Under the pieces are notes generated by a model, which made no database searches, was not told the origin of the DNA, and worked only from the letters and a program-made list of their open reading frames with translations. A stretch of 64,000 nt of DNA, taken from Serratia surfactantfaciens (GTDB lineage: Bacteria; Pseudomonadota; Gammaproteobacteria; Enterobacterales; Enterobacteriaceae). A program made the position numbers and the translations under genes. Every line of letters begins with the position of its first letter. Positions within the stretch are counted from its first letter, which is position 1. Below are positions 34,561 through 42,083 of the stretch, piece after piece. Location: assembly GCF_001642805.2 (NCBI RefSeq), contig NZ_CP016948.1, forward strand, positions 3,162,001 to 3,226,000, in the 5' to 3' direction.

Positions 34561-34885
34561 TGAAAATCAATAGGTTGTGATCAACGCTGCGTTAATCCCT
34601 GAGCGGGATCATGCCAGCGGCGGCGCGGACAAACAAGCGATTAAATTGGCCGAGCGCCTGGCGGAGCAGACGCTGGGCAGAATGTGGCAGAAGCGGCCCG
34701 CCGTCGGCCTGCGGCCCGAAAACATCAAGTTTACTGATAATAAAAAAACTGACCGATGCCGTCATTGAGGCGGGAAAACACGCTCACTCCTTATCAAACC
34801 GGAGCGAAAACGTGACCTGATGCAAGCGACGCAAGCACGGGCTAGACACAACTCATCAATTCTCATTACTATAGCCACACATTTT
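34561..34885. other. Gap between thiM riboswitch and AraC-family gene
   Basis: The 325 bases must hold the promoters of thiMD and of the AraC-type gene. A 63-codon frame at 34577-34768 with GC-biased third positions looks protein-like (about 45 codons without stop after IPERDHASGG) but has no ribosome site and no family I can name. It may be a remnant of a lost gene. Confidence 0.4.
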
Positions 34886-35740
34886 ATGAGTCATGATGCT
34901 ATGCCAGAAATCACTGAATCCATCTTCGTCAATTCAGATCTGCTTAATGAACATTTTGACCCCGACGCCATCGATACGCCCATCGTGTCGATCTACGCCA
35001 CTTTCTCAGATGAGAAAGAACATTCGTTACGTTCAAGAATGCATTCGCATGCCAAAGGCCAGCTGGTCTACGTCAAATCGGGCGCCGCTATCGTCATGCT
35101 GGAAGCGCGCATTTGCTCCGTGTTGCCGCATCAGTTGCTTTGGATCCCCGGCGGCGTTGCCCACAATGTGATCCTGCGCGACAACGTCGATTTTCGCGCC
35201 GTCTATCTCGACCAACAGCGCTTCGCTCCGCTGTCGAAAAACGTCGAGGTCTTTACCCTCACTCCGCTGCTGGAAGAGGTTATCGAAACCATGTGCCGTT
35301 CCCCTTTCCACACCGACTGGATGGCGGGAACCGAGTTCCATCTGCAATCTCTGCTCATCGACAAAATCCGCGTCGCCGCCCATTCCCCCGCCTGGCCGGC
35401 CTTGCCGAACGATGCCCGGGTGCGCAATTACCTGCAGTGTTACCATTTGAAAGGTGAAATGGTGCCGCGATTGAATGAGCTGGCGTCCCATTGCGGCGCT
35501 TCCGAGCGCACCATCCATCGTCTGTTCGTTCAGGGAACCGGCATGTGTTATCAGCAGTGGCGCCAGCAGGTGCGTTTGAAACTGGCCCTGGAGTTGCTGA
35601 CCACCGATAAACCGATCACCGAGATCGCTCACTATCTCGAGTTCTCCACCACCAGCGCCTTCATCTCCTTTTTCAAACACCACCGGGACGTGACGCCGAA
35701 AAAATACCGCGACCAATTGCACAAGCCCAACACGCGCTGA
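34886..35740 (+). CDS. AraC-family transcriptional regulator with cupin sensor
   Basis: A 284-residue regulator. Residues 35-130 resemble the cupin sensor of AraC proteins (RMHSHAKGQLVYVKSG and LLWIPGGVAHNV), and residues 175-275 contain two HTH motifs (LNELASHCGASERTIHRLF and ITEIAHYLEFSTTSAFISFF). It resembles the regulators found next to MFS or AzlCD exporters, such as NimR. The start is uncertain: ATG at 34886 or 34901; neither has a clear ribosome site, and the frame is open back to 34820. It converges on azlD with six bases between stops, and is a likely controller of the neighbouring cluster. Confidence 0.85.
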   Translation: MSHDAMPEITESIFVNSDLLNEHFDPDAIDTPIVSIYATFSDEKEHSLRSRMHSHAKGQLVYVKSGAAIVMLEARICSVLPHQLLWIPGGVAHNVILRDNVDFRAVYLDQQRFAPLSKNVEVFTLTPLLEEVIETMCRSPFHTDWMAGTEFHLQSLLIDKIRVAAHSPAWPALPNDARVRNYLQCYHLKGEMVPRLNELASHCGASERTIHRLFVQGTGMCYQQWRQQVRLKLALELLTTDKPITEIAHYLEFSTTSAFISFFKHHRDVTPKKYRDQLHKPNTR

Positions 35741-35746
35741 GCGTTG

Positions 35747-36067
35747 TCAGCCAAGCCCGCGAATCAGCCAAAACGCCGCCATCCCGAGCAACAGCATCAA
35801 GGTGGCGTTGCGCGTTTTCCACATCACCAGCGTCGCCACGATCGCCGCGCACAGTTTCGGCGCGCCTTCGGCCGACAGCGCCGAGGGTGAAGCGATCAGG
35901 GCCGGCACGATCAGAGACACGATGGCCGTGGCCGGGATCAGTTTCAACCATTCGCCCACCCGCTCGGGAAACGGCACACGATCGTTGAGCCACAAAAAGG
36001 AATAACGCAGTAAAAACGTGCCCAGCGTGCTGATGGCCAGCACCCATAGAATCGTCGTCTCGCTCAT
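35747..36067 (-). CDS. AzlD-family branched-chain amino-acid exporter subunit
   Basis: A 106-residue membrane protein with about three to four helices, including LLRYSFLWL (residues 20-28) and LMLLLGMAAFWLIRGLG at the C-terminus. AzlD proteins are the small partner of AzlC; in E. coli the equivalents YgaH/YgaZ export L-valine. It overlaps the azlC-type gene by four bases (ATGA) and is the last gene of the minus-strand cluster. The substrate here may be a different small acid or amino-acid analogue. Confidence 0.87.
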   Translation of the reverse strand: MSETTILWVLAISTLGTFLLRYSFLWLNDRVPFPERVGEWLKLIPATAIVSLIVPALIASPSALSAEGAPKLCAAIVATLVMWKTRNATLMLLLGMAAFWLIRGLG

Positions 36068-36774
36068 GACGGCTCCTCGCTGCGTTGAGGCCCTCTGCCC
36101 TTGTGATACAAACCGCCGGCCAAGACGCCCGCGGCCATCGAAAACAAGAACCCCAGGTTATAGGGCCATCCGCAGGTAAAGGCGGAAACCAGCCCGGCAA
36201 CCGCGGCCGCCACCACGATGGGGGCGTTTTTCAACATTGGCACCAGGAGCGAGATAAAGCACAGGGTGATGGCGAACTCCAGATGCCAGGCGGCGGGAAT
36301 TAACGGACCGGCGAGGATCCCCGCCGCCGTCCCCGTTTGCCACACCAGCCACATCGGCAGCGCCGTGCCGAAGTAATACAGCGTTTTTTCTTTCGCGCTC
36401 AGCGGCTGGGCCTGGCAGCGCAAAAACGTCAGCGCGTAAGTCTGGTCGATCAATACCTGCGCCGCCGCCAGCTTGGTCAGCGGGCTGAACTGGAGCCTGA
36501 GCTGAGACAGCCCGGCGCTGTAGATGGCATAGCGAAAATTGATCGCAATGTGCGTGACGATCACCACCAACGGTGCGGCGCCGGCCGTCATCAGCGTGGC
36601 AGCGGCAATTTGCGAAGCCCCGGACATTAACAACAACGACGACAGTTGAGCCACCCAGGGCGTCATTCCCGCCTGAATGGCGCTGACGCCGGTCAGGACG
36701 GCGAAGGGCAGCAAACCCAGCAACAGAGGCATGGCGTCTTTACTGCCCTGAACAAAGAAAGGCATCGGCTTCAT
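36064..36774 (-). CDS. AzlC-family exporter large subunit
   Basis: A 236-residue membrane protein with about seven helices. The AzlC signature regions are visible: MPLLLGLLPFAVLTGVSAIQAG (about residues 14-35), LLLMSGASQIAAATLM (about 46-61) and the LIDQTYALTF segment (about 108-117). AzlC with AzlD forms a branched-chain amino-acid exporter (LIV-E family). The start at 36774 has GAGAAG upstream. It follows the enolase-like gene by 66 bases that include a strong hairpin, so it could be co-transcribed at a lower level. Confidence 0.9.
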   Translation of the reverse strand: MKPMPFFVQGSKDAMPLLLGLLPFAVLTGVSAIQAGMTPWVAQLSSLLLMSGASQIAAATLMTAGAAPLVVIVTHIAINFRYAIYSAGLSQLRLQFSPLTKLAAAQVLIDQTYALTFLRCQAQPLSAKEKTLYYFGTALPMWLVWQTGTAAGILAGPLIPAAWHLEFAITLCFISLLVPMLKNAPIVVAAAVAGLVSAFTCGWPYNLGFLFSMAAGVLAGGLYHKGRGPQRSEEPS

Positions 36775-36793
36775 GGTAGGCTTCTCGTGGATC

Positions 36794-36822
36794 CCCCTTG
36801 CCCACGGTAACGGGGCAAGGGG
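36794..36822 (-). repeat. Inverted repeat between enolase-like gene and azlC-type gene
   Basis: CCCCTTGCCC and GGGCAAGGGG form a ten-base-pair stem with a nine-base loop. No T-run follows on the minus strand, so it may stabilise or attenuate the message rather than end it. Confidence 0.5.
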
Positions 36823-36840
36823 TAAAAAGCGCGGGCGGGT

Positions 36841-38094
36841 TCAGACGGCCTGCGCATCGGCGATCGCATCCTGCAACCGCAGCAGCTGATTGTATTTGCC
36901 CATCGCCTCGGTGCGCGCCAGCGAACCGAACTTCACCTTGGTGGCGTTCAGCGCCACCGCCAAATCGGCAATGCTGGTGTCTTCGGTTTCACCGGATCGC
37001 CGTGAGAACACGACGCCGTATCCGGCTGCCTTGGCTGACGCCACCAGGCTCATGGTTTCGCTCAGCGTGCCGACCTGATTCGGTTTCACCAAAATGGAGT
37101 TGGCCATCTTCAGGGCGATGCCCTGTTCAAAACGCGCCAGATTAGTCGTGAACAGATCGTCGCCCACCAGCTCGATTTGGCCACCCAGCCGCCGCGTCAG
37201 CGCAATCCAGCCCTCGAAGTCGTCCTCCCCCAGCGGATCTTCCATCAGCACGATCGGATAGCGCTCGCAGAGCGACGCCAGGTAATCAATAAAGGCCGTG
37301 GTCGTCAGCGTCCGCCCTTCCGCCGCCAGGTGATAGCGGCCATCTTTAAAGAACATCTCGGCCGCGATGTCCATGCTCAAGCCGACGTCCACGCCCGGCT
37401 CATAGCCCGCTTTGCCGATGGCTTCCAGCAACAGCGCCAGCCCCTGCTCATTGGAGCTCAGCGGCGGCAGAAATCCCCCCGTGCCGGAAACGCCGGTGCC
37501 GATCCCGCGCGCCATCAGCAGGGCTTTCAGCGCCATATGCACGTTTTTACCCACCTGCAGCGCCGCTTCAAGATGCGCCGCATTCAGCGCGATCACCTGA
37601 TAATCCTGAAAATCGCAGTTGCCGTCGCCATGCATGCCGCCGGACAACATCGAGAAAATGGGCTGCGGCATGGATTTCGCCTGCCCGCGGCTGACGTAAT
37701 CGCACAGCGACTGATTGCTGTGCACTGCCGCCGCATTCGCCACCGCCAGCGACACGCCGAGGATCGCATTGGCCCCCAGCCGGCTTTTGTTGGCGGTGCC
37801 GTCCAACGCTATCAGCATGCGGTCTATCTCGTCTTGCGCATAGGGCGACATGCCGCGCAGCCGCGGCTTAATCACGGTGTGCACGATGTCTATCGCCCGC
37901 AAAACGCCCTGCCCGCTGAAGCGCCGCGGATCGTTATCACGCACCTCGATCGCCTCATGCTTGCCCTTGGAACACCCCGTTGGAATGATGCTGCGGCCAC
38001 GCTTGCCGCTGTCCAGCACCACTTCGACCTCCAGCGTAATGTCCGCGCGTGAGTCAAACACTTCACGCGCGCGTATGTCCATAATGGTCGGCAT
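36841..38094 (-). CDS. Enolase paralogue with altered active site
   Basis: A 417-residue enolase-fold protein, similar along its length to housekeeping enolase (432 residues in E. coli). Mg2+ ligands survive: Asp242 (SMDIAAE), Glu285 (LMEDPL) and Asp312 (VGDDLF); so do the catalytic Lys337 (VKPNQVG), Lys388 and His155. However, the catalytic Glu of GDEGG is Thr205 (SGTGGF), the His of SHRSGE is Arg365 (SRRSGE), and the Glu of DIQEF is Asp164 (DFQDY). These residues are needed for 2-phosphoglycerate dehydration, so this is probably not a glycolytic enolase but an enzyme acting on another substrate. Residue matches are from my manual alignment. It starts one base after the UGSC-like gene ends, with AAGGAATC as ribosome site. 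Confidence 0.88.
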   Translation of the reverse strand: MPTIMDIRAREVFDSRADITLEVEVVLDSGKRGRSIIPTGCSKGKHEAIEVRDNDPRRFSGQGVLRAIDIVHTVIKPRLRGMSPYAQDEIDRMLIALDGTANKSRLGANAILGVSLAVANAAAVHSNQSLCDYVSRGQAKSMPQPIFSMLSGGMHGDGNCDFQDYQVIALNAAHLEAALQVGKNVHMALKALLMARGIGTGVSGTGGFLPPLSSNEQGLALLLEAIGKAGYEPGVDVGLSMDIAAEMFFKDGRYHLAAEGRTLTTTAFIDYLASLCERYPIVLMEDPLGEDDFEGWIALTRRLGGQIELVGDDLFTTNLARFEQGIALKMANSILVKPNQVGTLSETMSLVASAKAAGYGVVFSRRSGETEDTSIADLAVALNATKVKFGSLARTEAMGKYNQLLRLQDAIADAQAV

Positions 38095-38095
38095 G

Positions 38096-39799
38096 CTAGT
38101 GATTCCTTAAGTTTGCTGGCGCGGCCCGGAAGTCTTCAAGGGTGCGCGCAAGTTGCCCGCCGGGCAGCGTCAACGGCGTGAGCACCGCATCGCAATAGAG
38201 GCCCCAGCTCGCCAGAATGGCGGAATGCCCGCCCCGCCCCCCCGCGACCACCAGATCGATATCCTGGGCGCTGCGCGTCGCCGGCATGGGATCGCGGCCG
38301 GCAAACTGCGCCGGCCTCACGGGCACCAGACCTTTGCCCTGCACGGCGCCAAGCGGGTTATGGATATGTGCGTGCAGATATTCCCGCAGCGCGCTCTTGC
38401 TCCAGCCCGCGTTATGCAGCATCTGGGCGTGATCGGGCGTCAGGACAATCAAAATCCGTCCCGGAATGTACGCATTCATGCGCCCCAGGTGGGTGGCGCT
38501 GTCGACAATCACGTCGAGCAGGCTGCCCGCCGTTTGGCTCAGAAAATCAACCACGTCGGTCGGCGGTTCCGCCTTCATCAGATACACGCTGGTGGCTTCA
38601 GGCCCGAATCGTTCTTCGTTCAAGGTCGGCCAGGGGCTGTTGACCAGGCTTTCCGCAAAACAGTAAGTAAACTCGACCGGCGAGCCGAGGCAGCCCAGAT
38701 CCGCCTTGCCCGGGTAGGCGCGGCACACGTTGAGGATGGTCAGGTTAACCGCACGGCCAATGGTGGCGTTGGCCCGGAACCCCGGCCCCATACAGCCCTG
38801 GCCGGAACTGATCCCCAGTTCAGCGGCGATCGGCCCGCTGACCAACACCAGATTGCCGCCGTTGTACGAGGTGGTGATGGATTGCTGGAAGTTGAATGCG
38901 GGATCGGCCATCGCGCGCAGCGTCGCCGTCACGATAGGTAAGAATGCGGGTTTGCAGCCGGCCAGGATGCTGTTGATGACCACATCGCGCACCCGAATGT
39001 CTTTGCCCGAGGGGCCCGCTTCCGGGATCAGCACGGTATCCAGCGGTTCGGGGCAGTAGGCCAGCATGGCGGCAAAACGCGCCGGCGTCGGCGGGATCAC
39101 CGGCAAACCGTCACCGATAGACTGGCGTTCATACTCCGCCATCAGCGCGTCCAGGCCGTGGTAAGGCATCATGTCCGCCCCGGAATGGCCTCGGTCAAGA
39201 TCCATTTTCGGATGAAGCGCCGCGGCGGCAGGCCTATCGCCGGCGCCGGTGAGCGCCTCCAGAACGTAAGCGCGCCGGGCGTCAACCTGCCGGCGAATAT
39301 CGCTGACGGAGCTTGCCTGATAGATGTCGAGACGGCAAATGCACAGCTGCCCCGCTCGATAATGGGCCACGTGCTCGGCCAGATTGTCGCCGGGGGGCGA
39401 GGCGATCAATAACGTGGCGACGCCCCTTTTCTCCAACTCGATGGCGAGGATGGTGGTCATCACCGAAGTGCCCATGTCCGCTAACGCCACAACGGCGGCC
39501 TGCACCCCTGTTTGCGCCAACTGGTCAGCCAACACGCGGATCTGTGCCGTCATCGTGCCACGCACGGACTGACGAACATGTTCGATGTGATGAATGCCGA
39601 GTTCATTCAAGATCGTTTCAAGACGGGTGAATATTTCGCGGTAATGACAGAAGTCCAGCTTGGTATTGTCAAAAAACAGGACTTTGCCATCCCGTAATGC
39701 CTGCAGACTGGGGCGCGGCGCCAACTGTAATTCGTAAAAATGGTTCTCTCCACGCGGATCGAAAATAGCTTCGGCCAACTCATTGTTCATCATTATCAT
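38096..39799 (-). CDS. UGSC-like two-domain protein of unknown function
   Basis: A 567-residue soluble protein. Residues 35-165 resemble the UGSC-like fold, a thiol/selenol-associated family: ALADMGTSVMTT followed by IELEKRGVATLLI corresponds to the UGSC core, with Met-Gly-Thr-Ser (109-112) replacing Sec/Cys-Gly-Ser-Cys. So the redox residues are missing. Residues 215-567 form a second domain that opens with SIGDGLPVIPPTPARFAAML and has Gly- and Cys-containing loops (SSGQGCMGPGF, ADLGCLGSP) and a late GGRGGHSA; similar regions occur attached to UGSC domains, but I know no activity for them. The ATG at 39799 has AGGGTGA upstream. It is the first gene of the right-to-left unit ending in azlD and is tightly coupled to the enolase-like gene. 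Confidence 0.7.
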   Translation of the reverse strand: MIMMNNELAEAIFDPRGENHFYELQLAPRPSLQALRDGKVLFFDNTKLDFCHYREIFTRLETILNELGIHHIEHVRQSVRGTMTAQIRVLADQLAQTGVQAAVVALADMGTSVMTTILAIELEKRGVATLLIASPPGDNLAEHVAHYRAGQLCICRLDIYQASSVSDIRRQVDARRAYVLEALTGAGDRPAAAALHPKMDLDRGHSGADMMPYHGLDALMAEYERQSIGDGLPVIPPTPARFAAMLAYCPEPLDTVLIPEAGPSGKDIRVRDVVINSILAGCKPAFLPIVTATLRAMADPAFNFQQSITTSYNGGNLVLVSGPIAAELGISSGQGCMGPGFRANATIGRAVNLTILNVCRAYPGKADLGCLGSPVEFTYCFAESLVNSPWPTLNEERFGPEATSVYLMKAEPPTDVVDFLSQTAGSLLDVIVDSATHLGRMNAYIPGRILIVLTPDHAQMLHNAGWSKSALREYLHAHIHNPLGAVQGKGLVPVRPAQFAGRDPMPATRSAQDIDLVVAGGRGGHSAILASWGLYCDAVLTPLTLPGGQLARTLEDFRAAPANLRNH

Positions 39800-39993
39800 T
39801 GTTCACCCTGAGGTTTTCGGGATGAAAATAGTAGCAAGCCGTCTAAATGACGAAATATAAGAAATACGCCAGTTAATTGCCAAAGTCCGCCAAGCTAAGA
39901 CCGCCTGCCGCGCTTTCACCTTTTCATCGGCGGGCATTTGCTTTACTCTGGGGCGGCGTATTTCCGCCCGCCGCGCGTTTTGGACAGACTACC

Positions 39994-40320
39994 ATGCATC
40001 GACTCTACACCTACCTTTGCGCTATCCATGCGCTGCCGTCACCGGTGAAAACGGTCAAGACCACGGAAACCCTCGAGCGTTTCCCCGAGGGGGAAAACAT
40101 GATCGAAGAACGCGAGATCCTTTACACCTTTAATAATGGCGTGCAGGTTTTATATAAAATGGAATCCGATACCTTCCAGTCGGATGATATTTGCCGGGAA
40201 TGCTGGATAAGTTATGACGTGGTGCATGATGGCGGATACGCCATCTCGCCGCAGAAAAAGCAGTTTTATAACCGCTGCCAGGAAAGTTTCTGGCTGAAAA
40301 TGCAGGCTGACCGCGATTGA
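39994..40320 (+). CDS. Small conserved-looking protein of unknown function
   Basis: A 108-residue soluble protein on the plus strand, inside the otherwise minus-strand cluster. I do not recognise its family. It has no signal peptide or membrane helix; visible features are CRECW (about residue 70) and a late FYNRCQESFW segment. The ATG at 39994 is preferred because the upstream frame back to 39877 is not protein-like, but the ribosome site is weak. The second half is less GC-rich than neighbouring genes. It is divergent from the UGSC-like gene and convergent with the aconitase-X small subunit. Confidence 0.6.
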   Translation: MHRLYTYLCAIHALPSPVKTVKTTETLERFPEGENMIEEREILYTFNNGVQVLYKMESDTFQSDDICRECWISYDVVHDGGYAISPQKKQFYNRCQESFWLKMQADRD

Positions 40321-40329
40321 AAATATAAC

Positions 40330-40357
40330 AGCGCCAGCCATTCTCCAACCGGCGCTT
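40330..40357 (+). terminator. Possible terminator after the small unknown gene
   Basis: AGCGCC and GGCGCT pair across 15 bases, followed by TTATT, ten bases after the stop of the preceding gene and before the end of the convergent aconitase-X small-subunit gene. Confidence 0.35.
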
Positions 40358-40371
40358 TATTGATCCGTTGG

Positions 40372-40770
40372 CTAACCCGCCTCGATGGCGATATCTTCAC
40401 CGTCGATCGCCACCCGTTGACCGTGCTTGAACAGCGCCAAGACGTCCTCGTCGAAGCGGTCAAAAATGGGGATGTCTATCGCCATCGCCGACTCAAACAG
40501 AATCGGATCTGCGTGATTGCAAATAATTGCCGCCGGGGCGTTGCCCTGCTGAAACGCCTCGTAAATTAAAAACGGCGCCATGGTTCCCCCTTTGCCGCCC
40601 GGGCACACCAGCGCCTTGCCCGCCAGCGACTCGCCATAGCGCGGATGATGCGGGATCAGCAGCGCCCCGGTCTGAGGATCAAAGTCGCCGATAAACGAAA
40701 ACGCCTGTTCGACGAGAAACACCTCGGCAACCACCCAACCAGGGTTCAGCGGTCTGGCCTGTAATTTCAT
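40372..40770 (-). CDS. Aconitase-X swivel (small) subunit, DUF126 family
   Basis: A 132-residue protein of the DUF126 family, the swivelling small part of aconitase X enzymes. Visible features: the opening Arg-Pro-Leu-Asn-Pro-Gly segment, HHPRYGESLAGKALVCPGGKGG (about residues 40-61), whose Ser and Pro-Gly-Gly-Lys-Gly loop are characteristic, and ICNHADPILFESAMAIDIP (about 83-101). It should pair with the large subunit just upstream, with which it overlaps by four bases (ATGA). In other bacteria AcnX proteins dehydrate cis- or trans-3-hydroxy-L-proline, and in archaea mevalonate 5-phosphate. Confidence 0.85.
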   Translation of the reverse strand: MKLQARPLNPGWVVAEVFLVEQAFSFIGDFDPQTGALLIPHHPRYGESLAGKALVCPGGKGGTMAPFLIYEAFQQGNAPAAIICNHADPILFESAMAIDIPIFDRFDEDVLALFKHGQRVAIDGEDIAIEAG

Positions 40771-42083
40771 GCGGTCACCTGCGGTGTGAGAGGGGTGGAG
40801 TCAAGCAATGACCGGATGCAGCATTCGATGTCCGCAACGCCTACGGAGAGGCGTTTCTGGTTCAGCTGCGAGATGTAATGAGCGGCTTTCATCGACGACG
40901 TCATAACGGCGTTCACCTGCGCGGGTATAGGAGAGTCGGGAATGGTAGACATGCAGGCGCTGACCATGACACCGCCCGCACGCTCAATGGCCGCCACATA
41001 GCCCATTTCCCTGGCGAGCTGATATTGCTGATGCGCCAAGCCAATCCACAAATGTTTATGGCGCGGGATCTGCCGCCCGGCCAGTAGCTTAGCGAGTAAA
41101 CGGATCTCCTGAATGCTGAGGTGCGGGCACCCCAGCACCACCATATCGGTCGCCGCCACCTCCCGCTGCGCCGTCACGCCGGCCAGTGGCGACAACAGGG
41201 GCCCCCCCGCCCCGCTCTGCGGCGCATAAAGCGCCAGCGAGCGCCGCAGGATCTCGCGATCGACCGAGATCTTTTTCACCGGGCGGCGCCCGCCTAGCGC
41301 TTCTTTCAGCGTGCCGGCTTCCGGCGTGACCCCGAGAACATGACAGACCCCCACGGCCCCCGTGACCGTCAGCGGGATCATGATCTGCTTGAGAAAGTCC
41401 ATGCCAAGTTCACGATCGATGCCGTCGATCACGATATTGTGCGATTTGGCCTGCGCCCCCAGGTAATAGCCGATCGCGCTGAGCTCGGTTTTTGAGAGCC
41501 GATTCGCATCGAGGCCGTCAAACGTGACCGATACCTCCGCCAGCCGGTTGCTCTCCAGGAACAAACCATAATAAGGCGAACGCCCCGTAATGGCCGCCGC
41601 CAGCGTAAGCAGCGCCCCGTCTCGATTGCAGCGCGCACCGATCGTCGAATTCACCAATACCTGGCCACCGGAACCGATCCAGGAGACGTAGTCGCCTTTT
41701 TTCGGCAGGCTGCCCACCATCGCCGGGTAGCAGGTGTAGGTTTGGTTAAAGCCCTTCTCCGCGAACAGGGCCGCCCGGCGTTTCACATCGGGCAGTTTCG
41801 TCTGCGCATACTGCGTATCGATACCCATCGCTGGCCAGGCGCTGGGGCAAAGCGCCGACATGTGGGGATGCAAGGTGGTCATGACCGGCAGTGTCTCCAC
41901 CCCCTCCGTCAGCGTTTCCAGCAGCCCCAAGGGTATATTGGGAATAACGTGTGCGCTGGCGATATTGACCAGCTTCGGCGCGCCAAAAGCGTTCGAGAAA
42001 TTGACGAGCACCTGCATGCACTTTTGCGCGCCTGGCCCGGCCGCGCCGGCAAGATATGCCCGATCCGTTTCGGTGAGTTGCAT
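40767..42083 (-). CDS. Aconitase-X catalytic (large) subunit, DUF521 family
   Basis: A 438-residue homologue of the AcnX catalytic subunit. Conserved features: SAHV (residues 43-46), TCYP (Cys118), the NSTIGARCNRDG strand (about 145-156), GCPHLSIQEI (Cys319) and SACMSTIP (Cys387). The three cysteines are in the places expected to bind the Fe-S cluster of AcnX. The usual AWSESSAV loop is VSWIGSGGQV here (about 133-142), so the active-site pocket differs from characterised hydroxyproline dehydratases. The start at 42083 has AAGGAATC upstream. The neighbours contain no proline catabolism genes, so the substrate is an open question. Confidence 0.85.
   Translation of the reverse strand: MQLTETDRAYLAGAAGPGAQKCMQVLVNFSNAFGAPKLVNIASAHVIPNIPLGLLETLTEGVETLPVMTTLHPHMSALCPSAWPAMGIDTQYAQTKLPDVKRRAALFAEKGFNQTYTCYPAMVGSLPKKGDYVSWIGSGGQVLVNSTIGARCNRDGALLTLAAAITGRSPYYGLFLESNRLAEVSVTFDGLDANRLSKTELSAIGYYLGAQAKSHNIVIDGIDRELGMDFLKQIMIPLTVTGAVGVCHVLGVTPEAGTLKEALGGRRPVKKISVDREILRRSLALYAPQSGAGGPLLSPLAGVTAQREVAATDMVVLGCPHLSIQEIRLLAKLLAGRQIPRHKHLWIGLAHQQYQLAREMGYVAAIERAGGVMVSACMSTIPDSPIPAQVNAVMTSSMKAAHYISQLNQKRLSVGVADIECCIRSLLDSTPLTPQVTA

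What the first reader, a model, noticed from the sequence alone, without database searches (positions are those of the whole stretch)
35747..42083. Unusual cluster: aconitase X, UGSC-like protein, enolase paralogue and AzlCD exporter
Minus-strand genes in order are AcnX large, AcnX small, a UGSC-like protein, an enolase paralogue, AzlC and AzlD; a convergent AraC-type regulator lies at the end. The coupling is tight (ATGA overlaps in AcnX and AzlCD, one-base gap between the UGSC-like and enolase-like genes). Dehydratase-type enzymes plus an exporter suggest a pathway that makes or detoxifies a small hydroxy or amino acid, not a known housekeeping route. I know no described pathway with this set. 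Family assignments are established knowledge; the joint function is inference.
Basis: partly seen in the sequence, partly recalled or inferred. Interest (0 to 1): 0.8.

Follow-up and report, generated by a model that had tools for sequence, protein, structure and literature searches.

The report
Mobile cassette of repurposed metabolic enzymes
A compact block of eight genes that moves between Serratia, Vibrio and other bacteria carries enzymes that look like familiar metabolic enzymes but have lost key working parts, next to an amino-acid-type exporter, so it probably makes an unknown small molecule.

Summary
The cluster is real: AcnX large and small, a UGSC-like protein, an enolase paralogue, AzlC and AzlD, with a convergent AraC regulator just outside the given range. 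The same eight-gene order occurs in S. marcescens MSU97, a Vibrio europaeus plasmid and Vibrio sp. Isolate32. In three of seven fetched Serratia relatives the site is empty: a 7.57-kb accessory insertion. It is rare: 3 of 30 Serratia genomes, the window's included. Catalytic residues are replaced: enolase E168D/D210G/E211T/H373R in 20 of 20 clade members, AcnX Glu to Gly in 15 of 15 nearest proteins, AcnX catalytic Ser to Gly, UGSC motif to MGTS. Enolase metal ligands and AcnX cluster cysteines are kept. All eight genes are under purifying selection (dN/dS 0.09-0.17). Best reading: a horizontally moving specialised-metabolite cassette of redirected enzymes plus an exporter. The product is unknown; none of my ten paper searches found a pathway with this set.

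The parts
40767..42083 (-). AcnX large subunit (438 aa), divergent subclass: three Fe-S cysteines (C118, C319, C377) kept, catalytic Glu replaced by Gly (G137)
   Evidence: Pfam PF04412 299.7 bits; residue counts; alignment to 7CNR and 7CNP-type chains
40372..40770 (-). AcnX small (swivel) subunit (132 aa); the catalytic Ser of TkAcnX (S62) is Gly here (KGGT)
   Evidence: Pfam PF01989 88.8 bits; alignment to 7CNR_B; same in L004, L006 and L007
40330..40356 (-). terminator-like hairpin downstream of AcnX-small (11-bp stem, then GTTATATTTT)
   Evidence: consensus scan (13 sites found in the region, mean 8.3 in shuffles); fold -18.0 kcal/mol, z -1.77. Weak on its own; the exact stem was not found in L004, L006, L007, L115 or L116
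   Evidence: tblastn; dN/dS 0.139 against L115; no Pfam or NCBIfam match at E 0.01
39854..39883 (-). sigma-70-like promoter candidate upstream of the UGSC-like gene (TTGGCA-18-TATATT, 10 of 12)
   Evidence: consensus scan; 4 sites found in the region, mean 3.1 in shuffles
38096..39799 (-). UGSC-like fusion protein (567 aa): Rossmann-like N-terminal UGSC-like domain with MGTS in place of [C/U]GSC, plus a C-terminal domain of unknown function with invariant D230, C282, N344, R349, E383, H457
   Evidence: Pfam PF24696 24.5 bits; alignments; AlphaFold2 pLDDT 93.8, pTM 0.92
36841..38094 (-). enolase paralogue (417 aa) with altered active site: E168D, D210G, E211T, H373R (yeast numbering, recalled); metal ligands and Lys bases kept
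   Evidence: NCBIfam TIGR01060 491.5 bits, cut-off 300; residue counts; monophyly
36064..36774 (-). AzlC-type exporter subunit (236 aa)
   Evidence: Pfam PF03591 105.5 bits
35747..36067 (-). AzlD-type exporter subunit (106 aa), ATGA overlap with azlC
   Evidence: Pfam PF05437 77.9 bits
34820..35740 (+). AraC-family regulator with cupin-like sensor domain, convergent
   Evidence: Pfam PF12833 and PF02311; present in L004, L006, L007
34653..42219 (.). whole accessory cassette (about 7.57 kb) between the thiM side and a GNAT gene
   Evidence: flanks adjoin with 15 and 17 bp between the matches in L112 and L113 (edges 34652/34651 and 42220), and with 35 bp in L118 (edges 34564 and 42225)

Best explanation
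It is a horizontally moving specialised-metabolism cassette that makes and exports a small carboxylate, probably an amino acid or amino-acid analogue, and is switched by its own AraC-type regulator. Likely mechanism: the enolase paralogue binds a phosphorylated C3-type substrate (2-phosphoglycerate, PEP or a relative), uses the retained Mg2+ site and Lys345/Lys396 to form the enolate, but, lacking E168/E211/H373, does not expel the 3-hydroxyl as enolase does; it more likely catalyses a different reaction of that enolate (addition, isomerisation or release of another group). The AcnX heterodimer keeps its Fe-S cluster cysteines and substrate Lys/Tyr/Ser but lacks the catalytic Ser and Glu, so it would act as a Fe-S Lewis-acid lyase or isomerase with altered chemistry. 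The UGSC-like fusion lacks the redox motif and would act as a non-redox enzyme, its C-terminal domain (C282, H457, E383, R349) carrying the active site. AzlCD exports the product. Shown: the cassette, its recurrence, its insertion site, its residue replacements and purifying selection. Inferred: substrate, reactions, product, direction of flow, export role.
For: Identical eight-gene order in four genomes from two orders (window; MSU97 L006; V. europaeus plasmid L004; Vibrio Isolate32 L007); a third Serratia, L116, matches the cassette by DNA apart from an internal deletion. UGSC and enolase hits have the same longest-contig length in seven further cases, e.g. Zooshikella 73525, Celerinatantimonas 275023, Xenorhabdus japonica 139069; gene order there was not seen. 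Pairwise distances of UGSC and enolase correlate, r = 0.947 over 28 pairs of 8 taxa (no null computed, shared ancestry alone would give a high value). AcnX also lies near a UGSC-like fusion in a Chloroflexi contig (L014) and a Sporomusa plasmid (L005). Insertion empty in 3 of 7 fetched relatives. Rare: 3 of 30 Serratia, own included; in the order (394 genomes) and in the class by the enolase at E 1e-140 (369 genomes) only the window's own genome matched, in Vibrio (227 genomes) only the centre genome G788. Active-site replacement fixed in 20 of 20 enolase-clade proteins (the window's own included), while 99 of 99 other enolases keep D210 and E211. AcnX Glu to Gly in 15 of 15 nearest proteins (window included) and 50 of 50 sister proteins. 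dN/dS 0.088-0.166 for all eight genes, so the odd enzymes are maintained. AzlCD of B. subtilis exports 4-azaleucine, histidine and asparagine (PMC11005379, passages read).
Against: No product, substrate or transcript is known. The exporter could remove a by-product of catabolism. No aminotransferase, ligase or kinase is in the cassette, so an amino-acid product would need a precursor amino acid or an outside aminotransferase. UGSC-like fusions at 44-48% identity sit in other contexts: in L008, L012 and L005 they are followed by a FAD oxidoreductase (PF12831), in L013 by a TctC receptor; no AcnX was found in L008-L013, none in genomes G789 and G790 and only sub-cut-off matches in G791. So the UGSC-AcnX link is not universal. 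In Sporomusa (L005) the AcnX large subunit keeps the canonical Glu (WNESS) and its small subunit keeps a Ser, so that AcnX is not of the same subclass. In more distant AcnX the Glu is also Gly in 4 of 49 and Asp in 2, and E145A of the A. pernix enzyme kept 76% activity, so loss of the Glu alone need not mean new chemistry.
Confidence: 0.45

Rival explanations
1. A catabolic or detoxifying cassette: an environmental hydroxy- or amino-acid-type compound is broken down by the three enzymes and AzlCD expels a toxic intermediate or by-product; the AraC regulator senses the compound.
For: Relatives of the UGSC-like protein lie in loci that look catabolic, with TRAP or TTT transporters, CoA transferases, SDRs or thioredoxin/thioredoxin reductase. 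Type I AcnX is tied to hydroxyproline metabolism (PMC5144071 abstract start; PMC8184944 passages).
Against: No importer, dehydrogenase or CoA enzyme among the eight genes; the redox motif of the thioredoxin-linked relatives is absent here; the only transporter is of an exporter family.
Confidence: 0.28
2. The enzyme-like proteins are no longer catalysts: they are pseudoenzymes that bind metabolites and regulate, or moonlight.
For: Canonical catalytic residues are replaced in the enolase and AcnX and the redox motif in the UGSC-like protein.
Against: Metal ligands (D246, E295, D320) and both Lys bases of enolase (20 of 20) and the three Fe-S cysteines of AcnX (15 of 15) are invariant, which a pure scaffold would not need; replacements are clade-wide and specific rather than decayed; dN/dS is as low as 0.088.
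Confidence: 0.12
3. The enolase paralogue is a self-protection copy that replaces housekeeping enolase while the cassette makes an enolase inhibitor such as a phosphonate of the SF-2312 type.
For: Enolase-inhibiting natural phosphonates exist (SF-2312; PMC13302981, passages read).
Against: A replacement must catalyse glycolysis, but E168, E211 and H373 are all replaced (20 of 20); no PEP mutase is among the cassette genes.
Confidence: 0.03
4. The genes are a chance neighbourhood without joint function.
For: The acnX genes and the ugsc-eno-azlCD genes are probably separate transcripts, with an opposite-strand gene between them.
Against: Eight genes in the same order and orientation in four genomes of two orders, moving as a unit into a site that is empty in relatives.
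Confidence: 0.04

Closest known systems
Enolase / phosphopyruvate hydratase (TIGR01060, PF00113/PF03952)
   Same: Sequence family, Mg2+ ligands, Lys345/Lys396, S39, H159, R374/S375; scores 491.5 against a cut-off of 300, and NCBI names the relatives phosphopyruvate hydratase
   Different: E168D, D210G, E211T, H373R in 20 of 20 clade members; monophyletic, support 0.999
[quoted passage not shown] A. tumefaciens AtAcnX)
   Same: Domain homology; 182.4 bits to NF051439
   Different: Two subunits, cut-off of 700 not met, E292 replaced by Gly, catalytic Ser70 by Gly, C510 by Ser
AcnX type IIb, phosphomevalonate dehydratase (T. kodakarensis and A. pernix)
   Same: Large and small subunits; three Cys for the cluster; K361 and Y365 equivalents kept
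   Different: E129, S62 and the phosphate-contact residue N79 are not kept. Watanabe et al. 2021 (section 14 read) say types IIc-IIf lack the landmark residues of both known functions; whether this one is among them was not tested
UGSC family (seleno)protein (PF24696, NF041046)
   Same: N-terminal domain homology; many close homologues carry PF24696 in precomputed annotation
   Different: Fused to a second domain; MGTS instead of [C/U]GSC; below both cut-offs for this protein. A UGSC protein fused to an 'Unknown_1' domain was noted in 2008 (PMC2398784, passages read); identity with this second domain was not tested
AzlCD amino-acid exporter of B. subtilis
   Same: Both subunits with overlapping genes; Pfam cut-offs met
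   Different: 47.4 bits against the TIGR00346 azlC equivalog cut-off of 332.35; substrate unknown

Membership tests
Enolase (phosphopyruvate hydratase) | Family model above curated cut-off | tested here: met
   TIGR01060 491.5 bits against 300
Enolase (phosphopyruvate hydratase) | Mg2+ ligands D246/E295/D320 and Lys345/Lys396 (numbering and roles recalled) | tested here: met
   20 of 20 clade members keep them
Enolase (phosphopyruvate hydratase) | Catalytic E168, E211, H373 (roles recalled) | tested here: not met
   D, T, R in 20 of 20; of 99 other enolases 99 keep E211, 97 keep E168, 97 keep H373
AcnX superfamily | Pfam AcnX and swivel domains above cut-off | tested here: met
   299.7 against 31.5 and 88.8 against 27 bits
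[quoted passage not shown]
   182.4 against 700 bits
[quoted passage not shown]
   both Gly here
AcnX phosphomevalonate dehydratase | Three Fe-S cysteines | tested here: met
   C118, C319, C377; 15 of 15 nearest proteins
AcnX phosphomevalonate dehydratase | Glu129, Ser62 and phosphate-contact Asn79 | tested here: not met
   G137, G62 of the small subunit, W83; mapping by sequence alignment, approximate for N79 and the gapped loop around residue 48. E145A of the A. pernix enzyme kept 76% activity (PMC10040528, passages), so Glu loss alone need not abolish dehydration
UGSC family (seleno)protein | Curated cut-offs | tested here: not met
   Pfam 24.5 against 25 (narrowly); NCBIfam 18.2 against 125
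UGSC family (seleno)protein | [U/C]GSC redox motif | tested here: not met
   MGTS here; of the 120 listed homologues 115 matched the search pattern and none of these has U/C-G-S-C there; 5 did not match the pattern
AzlCD exporter | AzlC and AzlD domains, adjacent genes | tested here: met
AzlCD exporter | Amino-acid export activity | not testable with these tools
   needs a transport assay

The most novel reading that the evidence does not exclude
A previously undescribed pathway in which three redirected enzymes, an enolase without its hydroxyl-expelling residues, an AcnX without its Ser and Glu, and a UGSC-like fusion without its redox centre, together turn a glycolytic phosphocarboxylate or an amino acid into a new exported antimetabolite; the cassette moves between enterobacteria and vibrios, in part on plasmids.
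Probability: 0.25. Interest if true: 0.85.

Novelty: new variant of a known kind. Interest (0 to 1): 0.62.

Why it matters
Databases call one of these genes phosphopyruvate hydratase and another aconitase X, so the cassette is easily overlooked as a biosynthetic cluster. If it works as proposed it adds a new reaction to the enolase family proper (not the wider enolase superfamily), a first role for an AcnX subclass without the known catalytic residues, and a role for UGSC-like fusion proteins, whose relatives are numerous in public data (1004 with E <= 0.001 among the 8000 candidates scored) and whose function I found nowhere described. All three become testable with one small cassette.

Tried and rejected

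Rejected: chance neighbourhood (recurrence); resistance enolase (catalytic residues replaced); one single operon (opposite-strand gene, terminator-like hairpin).

Rows dropped or chosen: the deep alignment used 44 of the 120 listed proteins and 42 of the 80 loci; of 51 locus stretches checked, nine (L019, eight) had stops or frame breaks and were left out. In one search dN/dS of AraC against L004 (0.733) was set aside as an alignment artefact, and several Vibrio dS values are saturated or undefined. Enolase and AcnX proteins of 380 aa or less were left out of the residue counts, and the enolase comparison set is the best hits to the query, not a random sample. The seven Serratia regions were chosen by me (two of them because they carry the cassette). 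L006, L088, L094 and L115 appear to be one genome (contig length 157241) and were counted once; L007 and L124 likewise.
Full report
What is there. Six minus-strand genes lie at 35747-42083 as described, with ATGA overlaps in acnX and azlCD and one base between the UGSC-like gene and eno. Pfam confirms AcnX large and small, enolase, AzlC and AzlD, and the AraC regulator at 34820-35740; UGSC is a near miss at 24.5 bits against 25. One gene was missed: a 108-aa ORF on the + strand at 39994-40320, without a Pfam or NCBIfam family, present at the same spot in L004, L006 and L007. The gap around it has a terminator-like hairpin after acnX-small (40356-40330) and a promoter-like site before UGSC (39883-39854). 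The region has 13 terminator-like sites against 8.3 in shuffles and 4 promoter-like sites against 3.1, so two transcripts is a suggestion.

Where it comes from. The window lies in a single 5.1-Mb contig. A same-genus genome (G403) holds the UGSC gene on a contig of 157241 bases, the contig length of the Serratia marcescens MSU97 record, so the genus is very probably Serratia. I fetched seven relatives. In three (L112, L113, L118) the DNA left and right of the cassette adjoins with 15, 17 and 35 bp between the matches. In L114 and L117 the site holds another insert of about 4.1 kb; in L115 and L116 it holds the cassette and an insert of about 4.2 kb. The ORFs of that insert in L114 and L115 look like a TetR regulator, an HlyD-type protein and a FUSC-type transporter (names by my reading, no family search); those of L116 and L117 were not read. 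So the cassette is a 7.57-kb accessory unit at a variable site. No matching end repeats were apparent. GC is 59% against 61% around it.

How widespread. The same eight genes in the same order and orientation occur in MSU97 (L006), the 336-kb plasmid of Vibrio europaeus (L004) and Vibrio sp. Isolate32 (L007); AcnX, UGSC and enolase are about 92% and 68-75% identical to the window's. A third Serratia (L116) carries the cassette with an internal deletion across the UGSC/eno junction. UGSC and enolase hits have the same longest-contig length for Vibrio sp. 10N.222.49.A3, V. parahaemolyticus, Zooshikella, Celerinatantimonas, Xenorhabdus japonica and two unnamed contigs; enolase and AcnX hits do for a Cedecea davisae plasmid. 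For those the gene order was not seen. Hits are also named from Salmonella enterica, Hafnia paralvei and Serratia nevei. Sampled frequency: 3 of 30 Serratia including the window's own. In 394 Enterobacterales and, by the enolase at E 1e-140, in 369 genomes of the class, only the window's own genome matched; in 227 genomes around the Vibrio genome G788 only G788 itself. In the phylum sample 35 of 398 genomes have some AcnX at E 1e-20, but apart from the window's own none exceeds 36% identity.

The enolase paralogue. It passes the NCBIfam enolase cut-off. All 20 members of its clade (the window's own protein included) carry D for E168, G for D210, T for E211 and R for H373 (yeast numbering, recalled), while D246, E295, D320, K345, K396, S39, H159, R374 and S375 are invariant. 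Of 99 other enolases, 99 keep D210 and E211, 97 keep E168 and 97 keep H373. The clade is monophyletic in an LG tree (support 0.999); one metagenomic protein, P0141, is its sister and has three of the four changes. The comparison set consists of the best hits to the query and is not a random sample of enolases. The two other enolases of the genome keep the canonical residue at all 13 sites looked at. Roles of these residues are general knowledge: K345 takes the C2 proton, and E168, E211 and H373 help expel the C3 hydroxyl. So proton abstraction and phosphate binding look intact, but normal dehydration does not.

The AcnX. The three cluster cysteines are kept (C118, C319, C377), as are the equivalents of Tk Lys361, Tyr365 and Ser130. 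Glu129 of TkAcnX (Glu292 of AtAcnX) is Gly in the 15 nearest proteins (10 at 62% identity or more including the window, 5 at 52-55%) and in 50 of 50 of a 41-50% identical sister group; in 49 more distant AcnX it is Glu in 43, Gly in 4 and Asp in 2. The gene neighbourhoods of the sister group were not seen. Ser62 of the Tk small subunit, superposed on the catalytic Ser70 of AtAcnX (PMC8184944), is Gly here and in L004, L006 and L007. Against over-reading: E145A of the A. pernix enzyme kept 76% activity, so loss of Glu alone need not abolish dehydration.

The UGSC-like protein. Stand-alone UGSC-type proteins from four plasmids show CGSC; here it is MGTS, and of the 115 homologues that matched the search pattern (of 120) none has [U/C]GSC. 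In four of five plasmid loci viewed, such a gene sits beside a homologue of our C-terminal domain (not so annotated in 74), and in three of the five a thioredoxin reductase gene is near (not in 70 or 74), which fits a redox enzyme. The fused branch here lacks that motif. Fused relatives at 44-48% identity have other neighbours, among them a FAD oxidoreductase in L005, L008 and L012. Residues invariant over 87 sequences in the C-terminal domain include D230, C282, N344, R349, E383 and H457. The AlphaFold2 model is good (pLDDT 93.8), but no PDB match falls below E 0.001.

Selection. Between the window and L115 (MSU97) all eight genes have dN/dS of 0.088-0.166, the small ORF included (0.139). So the proteins are maintained, whatever they do.

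Mechanism and verdict. Two enzymes of families that use neither NAD, ATP nor CoA (AcnX, enolase; family knowledge) and one of unknown cofactor need, each with altered catalytic residues, next to an amino-acid-type exporter and a dedicated regulator, moving as a rare unit: I think production and export of a small metabolite is most likely (0.45), catabolism or detoxification next (0.28). Which compound is unknown. Literature: Watanabe et al. 2021 (PMC8184944; passages and section 14 read), Komeyama et al. 2023 (PMC10040528; passages), two selenoproteome papers (PMC2398784 and PMC13188914; passages), AzlCD work (PMC11005379; passages) and a phosphonate review (PMC13302981; passages). In what I saw of them none describes this set. 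The library is open-access only, so most subscription papers were not covered.

Noticed in passing
39994-40320; L086 7995-8345; L091 8001-8351: The small ORF of the cassette has a relative of 80-90% identity on 54 of 58 matching plasmid records (Klebsiella, Escherichia, Enterobacter and others); in the two viewed it lies near blaSFO-1, perhaps brought along from a Serratia chromosome (guess).
   Followed up: partly
L114 6459-10568; L115 13319-17427: The same insertion site in other Serratia carries a TetR, HlyD-like and FUSC-like efflux set (names by reading), alone or next to the cassette: a variable hotspot between thiM and a GNAT gene.
   Followed up: partly
L116 near 6805: One Serratia genome has the cassette with an internal deletion of about 0.78 kb across the UGSC-like/eno junction, a natural loss.
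   Followed up: no
G000:C1:137867-139117 (L003) and G000:C1:1840904-1842133 (L002): The genome has two further enolases, both with the canonical residues at the sites looked at and both about 45% identical to the cassette one; why there are two is unexplained.
   Followed up: no
L005, L008, L012: The related UGSC-like fusion in Sporomusa and Acidobacteriota is followed by a FAD oxidoreductase (PF12831), which suggests a second, different system around this protein family.
   Followed up: partly
34653-34790: Between the insertion point and the AraC gene lies a stretch that reads like a scrap of an unrelated coding sequence; not searched.
   Followed up: no
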